A stretch of 34,644 bases of DNA from a virus, in IMG/VR virus record IMGVR_UViG_3300036781_000264, positions 1 through 34,644 of that record, one strand, 5' to 3'. Positions 30,261-30,440 of this stretch are shown here, piece by piece. The position numbers were made by a program, and so were the translations under genes. Every line of letters begins with the position of its first letter. Positions within the stretch are counted from its first letter, which is position 1. Under the pieces are notes generated by a model. That model worked only from the letters and a program-made list of their open reading frames with translations. It had not been told where the DNA came from and did not search any database.

Positions 30261-30293
30261 CCAATCTGAGTATTGCCGCGCCGATCTTATCAA

Positions 30294-30404
30294 GGTGTGC
30301 AGCAAATTTCCTGTTGGTCGCTGGTTCGATTCCAGCCGCCCCCGCCATCTTATGGGGACGTAGCTCAGCGGTAGAGCGGCAGTCTAAATCTGAAGCTGCA
30401 TATT
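30294..30404 (+). tRNA. Circularly permuted tRNA-like gene B
   Basis: The 3' half comes first: variable loop TGGTC (30315-30319), T arm GCTGG TTCGATT CCAGC (30320-30336), acceptor strand CGCCCCC (30337-30343), discriminator G and CCA (30345-30347). After six bases (TCTTAT) the 5' half follows: acceptor strand GGGGACG (30354-30360, six of seven pairs), TA, D arm GCTC AGCGGTA GAGC (30363-30377), and anticodon-stem strand GCAG (30379-30382), which pairs with CTGT (30311-30314). Beyond the anticodon loop, GCTGCATATT (30395-30404) pairs with GGTGTGCAGC (30294-30303), ten pairs including three wobbles. With normal spacing, U33 is 30385 and the triplet would be AAA, but the loop is split between halves, so identity is open. 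Class I otherwise, with normal variable loop. Confidence 0.75.
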
Positions 30405-30440
30405 AAACGCCGAAGATTGGGAGAAGTCGCGGAAGTCAAC

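What the first reader, a model, noticed from the sequence alone, without database searches (positions are those of the whole stretch)
30276..30432. Second, tandem permuted tRNA (B) with a split anticodon loop
Seen: class I T arm, normal variable loop, discriminator G and CCA precede, after six bases, a matching acceptor strand (six of seven pairs) and a perfect D arm. The anticodon stem pairs (GCAG with CTGT), and then a ten-pair outer helix follows (30294-30303 with 30395-30404). Further out, GATCTT (30283-30288) can pair with AAGATT (30413-30418) and CCGCG (30276-30280) with CGCGG (30428-30432). Two independent permuted genes side by side are hard to explain by decay. Both 5' strands carry a similar TCT[CA]AATC at the loop. 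Inside the loop, AAAT (30386-30389) can pair with ATTT (30306-30309), a short helix flanked by bulges, recalling the bulge-helix-bulge sites that guide splicing elsewhere.
Basis: partly seen in the sequence, partly recalled or inferred. Interest (0 to 1): 0.95.

Follow-up and report, generated by a model that had tools for sequence, protein, structure and literature searches.

The report
Tandem tRNA-mimic RNA beside DUF7873
Next to one protein gene of unknown function, this phage carries an RNA that folds into two inside-out copies of the tRNA shape without a usable anticodon, and the same protein-plus-RNA pair occurs in many unrelated phages and bacterial chromosomes, so it looks like a conserved, uncatalogued tRNA-mimic RNA-protein system.

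Summary
B (30276-30432) is a circularly permuted tRNA-like domain: T arm, acceptor 3' strand, GCCA, six bases, acceptor 5' strand, D arm, hung by its anticodon stem on two outer helices. A, just upstream, is a second one.

It is not a lone oddity. The pair follows the DUF7873 gene (29378-30118) in diverse phages and in Actinomycete, Planctomycete and Deinococcales genomes. At least one unit was detected after 166 of 179 DUF7873 genes. Of 191 units found by T- and D-arm motifs alone, 185 have 7/7 acceptor pairs (7.7% when partners are shuffled). Twenty-nine of 30 consensus pairs in B show compensatory changes. A DNA-only search for B found 13 viral contigs; all 12 that could be judged carry DUF7873 upstream.

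It is not a decoding split tRNA. U33 is not conserved in B, A's extra hairpin in the window has a GUAA tetraloop, and the proposed bulge-helix-bulge does not appear in the consensus.

The architecture matches the tRNA-mimic module of bacterial Y RNAs (YrlA), but the partner is DUF7873, not Ro60; no match reaches Rfam thresholds. Best reading: an uncatalogued Y-RNA-like tRNA-mimic scaffold acting with DUF7873. The function is inferred, not shown.

The parts
29378..30118 (+). DUF7873 protein gene (246 aa), the constant neighbour upstream of the RNA
   Evidence: Pfam PF25283 294.7 bits, E 8e-88; AlphaFold mean pLDDT 91.8; no known fold matched
30119..30525 (+). probable extent of the RNA, from the DUF7873 stop codon to a terminator-like hairpin; no transcript data
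   Evidence: no promoter-like site found in 29200-30800; terminator-like hairpin 30483-30515 followed by a T-rich tail; ends are inferred
30124..30137 (+). hairpin CAAGC-TCAA-GCTTG at the 5' side of unit A
   Evidence: sequence; similar in L013 and L035
30139..30260 (+). unit A with basal helix (GGTGAA 30139-30144 with TTCGCC 30255-30260)
   Evidence: sequence and fold; alignment A5, 21 of 30 consensus pairs with changes on both sides
30161..30177 (+). A: T arm GAAGG-TTCGACT-CCTTC
   Evidence: sequence; A5 columns
30178..30199 (+). A: acceptor 3' strand TGGGGCC, ACCA, linker CTGC, acceptor 5' strand GGCCCCC (6 of 7 pairs)
   Evidence: sequence; 7/7 in nearly all motif-detected relatives
30203..30218 (+). 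A: Leu-like D arm CCG...GGTAGA...CGG
   Evidence: sequence; A5 columns
30219..30232 (+). A: extra hairpin GACGC-GTAA-GCGTT in the place of an anticodon arm, capped by a tetraloop
30276..30432 (+). unit B with basal helices 30276-30280/30428-30432 and 30283-30288/30413-30418
   Evidence: basal helix covariation
30294..30303 (+). B: outer helix, 5' strand (pairs with 30395-30404)
   Evidence: 8 consensus pairs, all with changes on both sides
30395..30404 (+). B: outer helix, 3' strand, followed by conserved TTAAACG
30310..30314 (+). B: anticodon-stem 3' strand CCTGT (pairs with 30379-30383 GCAGT, 4/5); variable loop TGGTC follows
   Evidence: this stem is 5/5 in 71 of 108 relatives, 19 expected
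30320..30336 (+). B: T arm GCTGG-TTCGATT-CCAGC
30337..30360 (+). B: acceptor 3' strand CGCCCCC, GCCA, linker TCTTAT, acceptor 5' strand GGGGACG
   Evidence: 7 consensus pairs all covarying
30363..30377 (+). B: D arm GCTC-AGCGGTA-GAGC
30483..30515 (+). terminator-like hairpin (13 pairs) with T-rich tail
   Evidence: consensus match only

Best explanation
The region encodes one structured noncoding RNA of about 300-400 nt made with or just after the DUF7873 mRNA. It displays two tRNA-like modules (A and B), each with acceptor, T, D and anticodon stems and a conserved elbow, but each hung on a scaffold helix through its anticodon stem (B) or the equivalent place (A), so the acceptor end closes as a loop. 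I infer that DUF7873 binds the conserved internal loops of the basal stems and that the tRNA-like modules recruit an enzyme that reads the tRNA elbow and acceptor (RNase P, PNPase or a tRNA-modifying enzyme), as the tRNA-like module of bacterial Y RNA does for the Ro60 protein. Shown here: structure, conservation, linkage to DUF7873, loss of the anticodon. Inferred: protein binding, recruited enzyme, purpose.
For: A unit downstream of 166 of 179 DUF7873 genes. Units found by motif have 185/191 perfect acceptor stems; controls 0-1 of about 160, shuffles 0/1640. Covariation score 0.905 against 0.13-0.17 for slid partners. DNA-only search for B found 13 viral contigs, 12 judgeable, all with DUF7873 immediately upstream on the same strand. 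A-B spacing is narrow, mostly 142-156 nt. T-loop TTC and D-loop GG are invariant in the aligned B units. No other neighbour is conserved in 80 genomes. Y RNA modules are known circular permutations of tRNA (PMC11472068), carry tRNA modifications and tether Ro60 to PNPase (PMC8394870).
Against: No expression or binding data. DUF7873 is not strongly basic (median pI 6.5) and matches no known RNA-binding fold. The YrlA similarity is below threshold (39.8 bits, cut-off 69), and such sub-threshold hits also occur at ordinary tandem tRNAs. In 13 of 179 loci the detector found no unit, and several phages appear to carry only one.
Confidence: 0.6

Rival explanations
1. The units are processed into split but chargeable tRNAs: RNase P cuts before G+1, the 3' end is trimmed or completed to CCA, and aminoacylated acceptors on a scaffold feed a non-ribosomal or tmRNA-like reaction.
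For: G+1 in 97/108 A and 100/108 B; U at -1 in 74/108 B; C74 in 105/108 B; CCA encoded in 51/108 A and 36/108 B; A73 in 93/108 A, with a Leu-like D arm. CCA is sometimes encoded even where the phage's ordinary tRNAs on the same stretch lack it.
Against: CCA is missing in more than half of the units and does not clearly follow host convention. Linkers are usually a tight 6-8 nt loop, as if meant to stay closed. A discriminator bias alone does not prove charging.
Confidence: 0.15
2. It is a 3' UTR processing or stability element of the DUF7873 mRNA: tRNA-like folds punctuate the transcript for RNase P or other tRNA nucleases and set DUF7873 levels, with no separate RNA function.
For: Always directly downstream, same strand; no promoter-like site in between in the window, terminator-like hairpin after.
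Against: Two elaborate modules with fixed spacing, long covarying scaffold helices and conserved internal loops are more than a processing signal needs.
Confidence: 0.15
3. A true permuted pair of decoding tRNAs that is circularised or spliced to restore the anticodon.
For: Permuted order, CCA, complete tRNA core; Pseudanabaena phage PA-SR01 unit A keeps a loop that reads like a Leu UAA anticodon loop.
Against: U33 in only 15/64 B units; the window's A hairpin has a GUAA loop and most actinomycete A units show none; bulge-helix-bulge absent from the consensus.
Confidence: 0.04
4. Decoy: the tRNA-like modules titrate or block a host tRNA-targeting nuclease or other factor, with DUF7873 as partner, as a counter-defence or stress device.
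For: Frequent in tRNA-rich phages; the same idea was raised for YrlA as an anticodon-nuclease inhibitor (PMC7790460).
Against: Also sits in ordinary chromosomal surroundings in actinomycetes; no defence-family match; no anticodon to mimic.
Confidence: 0.06

Closest known systems
Bacterial Y RNA YrlA (Rfam RF02553), tRNA-like module bound to Ro60/Rsr
   Same: T arm, looped acceptor, D arm on a stem, i.e. a circular permutation of tRNA; stacked basal stems with internal loops; found in bacteria and phages; a TROVE-linked example (L224) also has a closed acceptor with ACCA
   Different: two modules per RNA at fixed spacing; partner gene DUF7873 instead of Ro60; own conserved internal loop AUCGAC / CUUAAACG; 39.8 bits against a cut-off of 69
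Circularly permuted tRNA genes of algae and an archaeon
   Same: 3' half before 5' half with a short linker containing CCA
   Different: no bulge-helix-bulge in the consensus, no anticodon loop, covarying scaffold helices outside the tRNA
Two-piece (permuted) tmRNA
   Same: permuted acceptor and T domain on a scaffold helix
   Different: full 4-bp D stem and anticodon stem in B; only 19.3 bits to RF04321 against a cut-off of 47
Ordinary tandem tRNA arrays of phages
   Same: 3' half of one tRNA followed by 5' half of the next gives the same local order and sub-threshold YrlA hits
   Different: here the flanking halves pair with each other, 7/7 in 185/191 units, and the outer flanks form covarying helices

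Membership tests
Bacterial Y RNA (YrlA, RF02553) | permuted tRNA-like module (T, looped acceptor, D) on a stem | tested here: met
Bacterial Y RNA (YrlA, RF02553) | score at or above the Rfam gathering threshold (69 bits) | tested here: not met
   39.8 bits in the window; no DUF7873-linked unit above threshold in 17 loci
Bacterial Y RNA (YrlA, RF02553) | encoded next to Ro60 (TROVE, PF05731) | tested here: not met
   no TROVE in the window record; TROVE in 5 of 10 DUF7873 genomes, and in the one placed case on another contig (G001: TROVE C104, DUF7873 C136)
Bacterial Y RNA (YrlA, RF02553) | binds Ro60 | not testable with these tools
   needs binding experiments
Circularly permuted tRNA genes | 3' half precedes 5' half of one tRNA, acceptor strands complementary | tested here: met
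Circularly permuted tRNA genes | bulge-helix-bulge at the junction of the termini | tested here: not met
   only a 4-bp AAAT/ATTT helix in the window, not in the consensus of 47 sequences
Circularly permuted tRNA genes | functional anticodon loop once the ends are joined | tested here: not met
   U33 in 15/64 B units; GUAA loop on A in the window
Permuted tmRNA (RF04321) | matches the family covariance model at threshold | tested here: not met
   19.3 bits against 47
Permuted tmRNA (RF04321) | tag-peptide reading frame and pseudoknots | not tested
   no separate search was made
DUF7873 (PF25283), for the neighbour protein | Pfam score above cut-off | tested here: met
   294.7 bits against 27

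The most novel reading that the evidence does not exclude
DUF7873 and its tandem tRNA-mimic RNA form an independent Ro60/Y-RNA-like ribonucleoprotein, present in hundreds of phages and bacteria, in which one RNA presents two chargeable, RNase-P-cut tRNA acceptors at once on a protein-bound scaffold: a tRNA-derived machine that does not decode.
Probability: 0.15. Interest if true: 0.95.

Novelty: new variant of a known kind. Interest (0 to 1): 0.8.

Why it matters
It adds a structured RNA, apparently absent from Rfam 15, and gives a partner to a protein family of unknown function; 554 cellular loci and 145 viral contigs encode relatives of that protein. Natural tRNA permutations without an anticodon are so far represented mainly by Y RNAs tied to Ro60; a second protein linked to such an RNA would show that tRNA mimicry by permutation arose or was recruited more than once. 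It also warns annotators: tRNA finders miss it or miscall parts of it as suppressor tRNA (phage FBKp24).

Tried and rejected
Group I permuted intron-exon arrangement: considered and dropped, the flanks are too short for a catalytic core and form simple helices. Chance or decay of a tandem tRNA array: rejected by covariation and controls. Integration-site remnant of tRNA halves: rejected because acceptor halves covary across many phages and chromosomes. Y RNA membership by Rfam score: rejected as evidence because ordinary tandem tRNAs score 39-43 bits too. DUF7873 as a Ro60 relative: no sequence hit and no fold hit. Defence-system match: none for DUF7873. CCA following host convention: no clear correlation. 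Patterns also returned chance or ordinary tRNA loci (L005, L006, L008, L010 and others). Alignment A1 was too divergent for a collection search. Chen 2014 could not be read; other subscription papers on Y RNAs were not looked up.

Full report
OBSERVATION. The window is a 34.6-kb IMG/VR virus record with a tyrosine integrase and a tRNA-Pro. The anticodon stem pairs 4/5. Folding energy alone is not remarkable (z = -1.0), so the case rests on comparison.

SURROUNDINGS. The gene directly upstream (29378-30118) is DUF7873 (Pfam PF25283). A relative with 52% identity in another IMG/VR contig is followed by the same two units with compensatory changes: acceptor of A GGCCCC/GGGGCC in the window against CGGGGGA/TCCCCCG; outer helix of B TGCAGC/GCTGCA against TGTACCG/CGGTACA. 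Phages annotated in GenBank show the same after DUF7873: Arthrobacter phages Mimi and Racecar, Rhodococcus NiceHouse, Gordonia Phendrix and Fryberger, Klebsiella FBKp24, Rhizobium TM21B and Y1_11, Vibrio D517 and K479, Pseudanabaena PA-SR01 and Pam2, Microcoleus My-WqHQDG. Some have one unit, most have two.

EXTENT. Scans with a DUF7873 alignment gave 554 cellular relatives in genome contigs and 145 in viral contigs; the best 80 of each were kept. Among 179 DUF7873 loci, 166 have at least one permuted unit in the 1000 bases after the gene. Units found by T-loop and D-loop motif only, with no acceptor criterion, numbered 191 in 116 of 164 non-redundant loci; 185 have 7/7 acceptor pairs, against 7.7% when partners are shuffled among loci. 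The same detector with at least 6 acceptor pairs finds 115/164 downstream, 0/164 on the reverse strand, 0/164 in the gene, 1/163 upstream, 1/160 further downstream, 0/1640 in shuffles. Independently, a DNA pattern for B run over viral contigs without reference to the protein gave 13 contigs; in all 12 that could be judged DUF7873 lies just upstream on the same strand (L219 is cut off). In a spread sample of 247 Actinomycetota genomes DUF7873 occurs in 6, so it is sporadic. No other gene is conserved next to it in 80 genomes, and in four actinomycete loci the neighbours looked up include ordinary chromosomal genes.

STRUCTURE. An alignment of 47 B units gives a consensus of 30 pairs in five helices: basal stem, outer helix, T, acceptor and D stems; 29 pairs show changes on both sides. 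95.6% of cells pair; covariation score 0.905 against 0.13-0.17 for slid structures and 0.24 for shuffled. The anticodon-stem position pairs 5/5 in 71/108 B and 63/108 A units (19 and 17 expected), with tRNA geometry. Unit A was aligned in 40 loci: 21 of 30 consensus pairs with changes on both sides. The tRNA elbow (TTC in the T loop, GG in the D loop) is invariant in the aligned B units. A and B are separated by a narrow distance, mostly 142-156 nt between T loops, which argues for one RNA.

NOT A DECODING tRNA. In B units with a perfect anticodon stem, position 33 is U in 15 of 64. In A, a hairpin follows the D stem in 17 loci; its loop is GUAA in the window and UUCGG in L149, while others keep traces of Leu-like loops; most actinomycete A units have none. 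The proposed bulge-helix-bulge (AAAT/ATTT) is not in the consensus. A-type units have A73 in 93/108 and Leu-like D arms; B has U73 or G73. Position 1 is G in 97/108 A and 100/108 B, C74 is present in 92/108 A and 105/108 B, U(-1) in 74/108 B, but full CCA in only 51/108 and 36/108. RNase P recognition is therefore plausible, charging is not established.

COMPARISON. Rfam at gathering thresholds finds no family at these units in any of the loci scanned. With a relaxed threshold, B matches YrlA over its full length at 39.8 bits (cut-off 69). That score is not specific: tandem tRNAs reach 39-43 bits. The architecture is nevertheless that of the Y RNA tRNA-like module, which is a circular permutation of tRNA (PMC11472068), is modified by DusA and TruB, and tethers Rsr/Ro60 to PNPase (PMC8394870). 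Ro60 is not the partner here: no TROVE in the window; TROVE in 5 of 10 DUF7873 genomes. In Embleya scabrispora TROVE and DUF7873 lie on different contigs, each with a YrlA-like hit near it, and Rhizocola hellebori has a TROVE-linked Y RNA (L224) besides its DUF7873 module. DUF7873 has a confident model (pLDDT 91.8), no solved or viral fold match, near-neutral charge but several nearly invariant Lys/Arg.

MECHANISM. Most likely DUF7873 and this RNA form a ribonucleoprotein in which the protein binds the conserved basal internal loops and the two tRNA mimics recruit a tRNA-elbow-reading enzyme. Linkage and structure are shown; binding, the recruited enzyme and the biological role are inferred.

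LIMITS. Literature was searched only in open-licence papers; Chen 2014 could not be opened. No paper found mentions DUF7873. The kept relatives are the best 80 of each scan, so counts of diversity are partial. The detector missed units in 13 loci, at least three of which (Vibrio D517, K479, Microcoleus) show one by eye.

Noticed in passing
window 32522-32598 and 32913-34154: tRNA-Pro(TGG) followed by a tyrosine integrase: looks like an integration module of a temperate phage; no direct repeat of 20 nt or more found around it.
   Followed up: partly
window 28182-28745 (-): NYN-domain (LabA-like) nuclease near the module; matches PADLOC NYN and HEC-09 models.
   Followed up: partly
window 25365-26846 (-): Wzy_C O-antigen ligase-like membrane protein in a phage, possibly surface-modifying.
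   Followed up: no
window 9048-9466: Four spaced ~71-nt direct repeats (about 114-117 nt apart) in a large ORF, a glycine-rich repeat protein.
   Followed up: no
L007 1600-2500 (- strand): Two tandem tRNA genes, each with a ~45-50 nt insert in the anticodon loop sharing CGCTGAAACTGAGATTG; possibly small introns or ribozymes.
   Followed up: no
L049 about 3440-3500 (Pseudanabaena phage Pam2): Sequence resembling a permuted tmRNA start (CCACCA...GGGGGATGCCGCAAGGACGTTTCGACAGG); not confirmed by Rfam at E 0.01.
   Followed up: partly
L044 2818-2897 (Klebsiella phage FBKp24): Annotated tRNA-Sup-TTA appears to be a miscall spanning A's 5' half and B's 3' half.
   Followed up: partly
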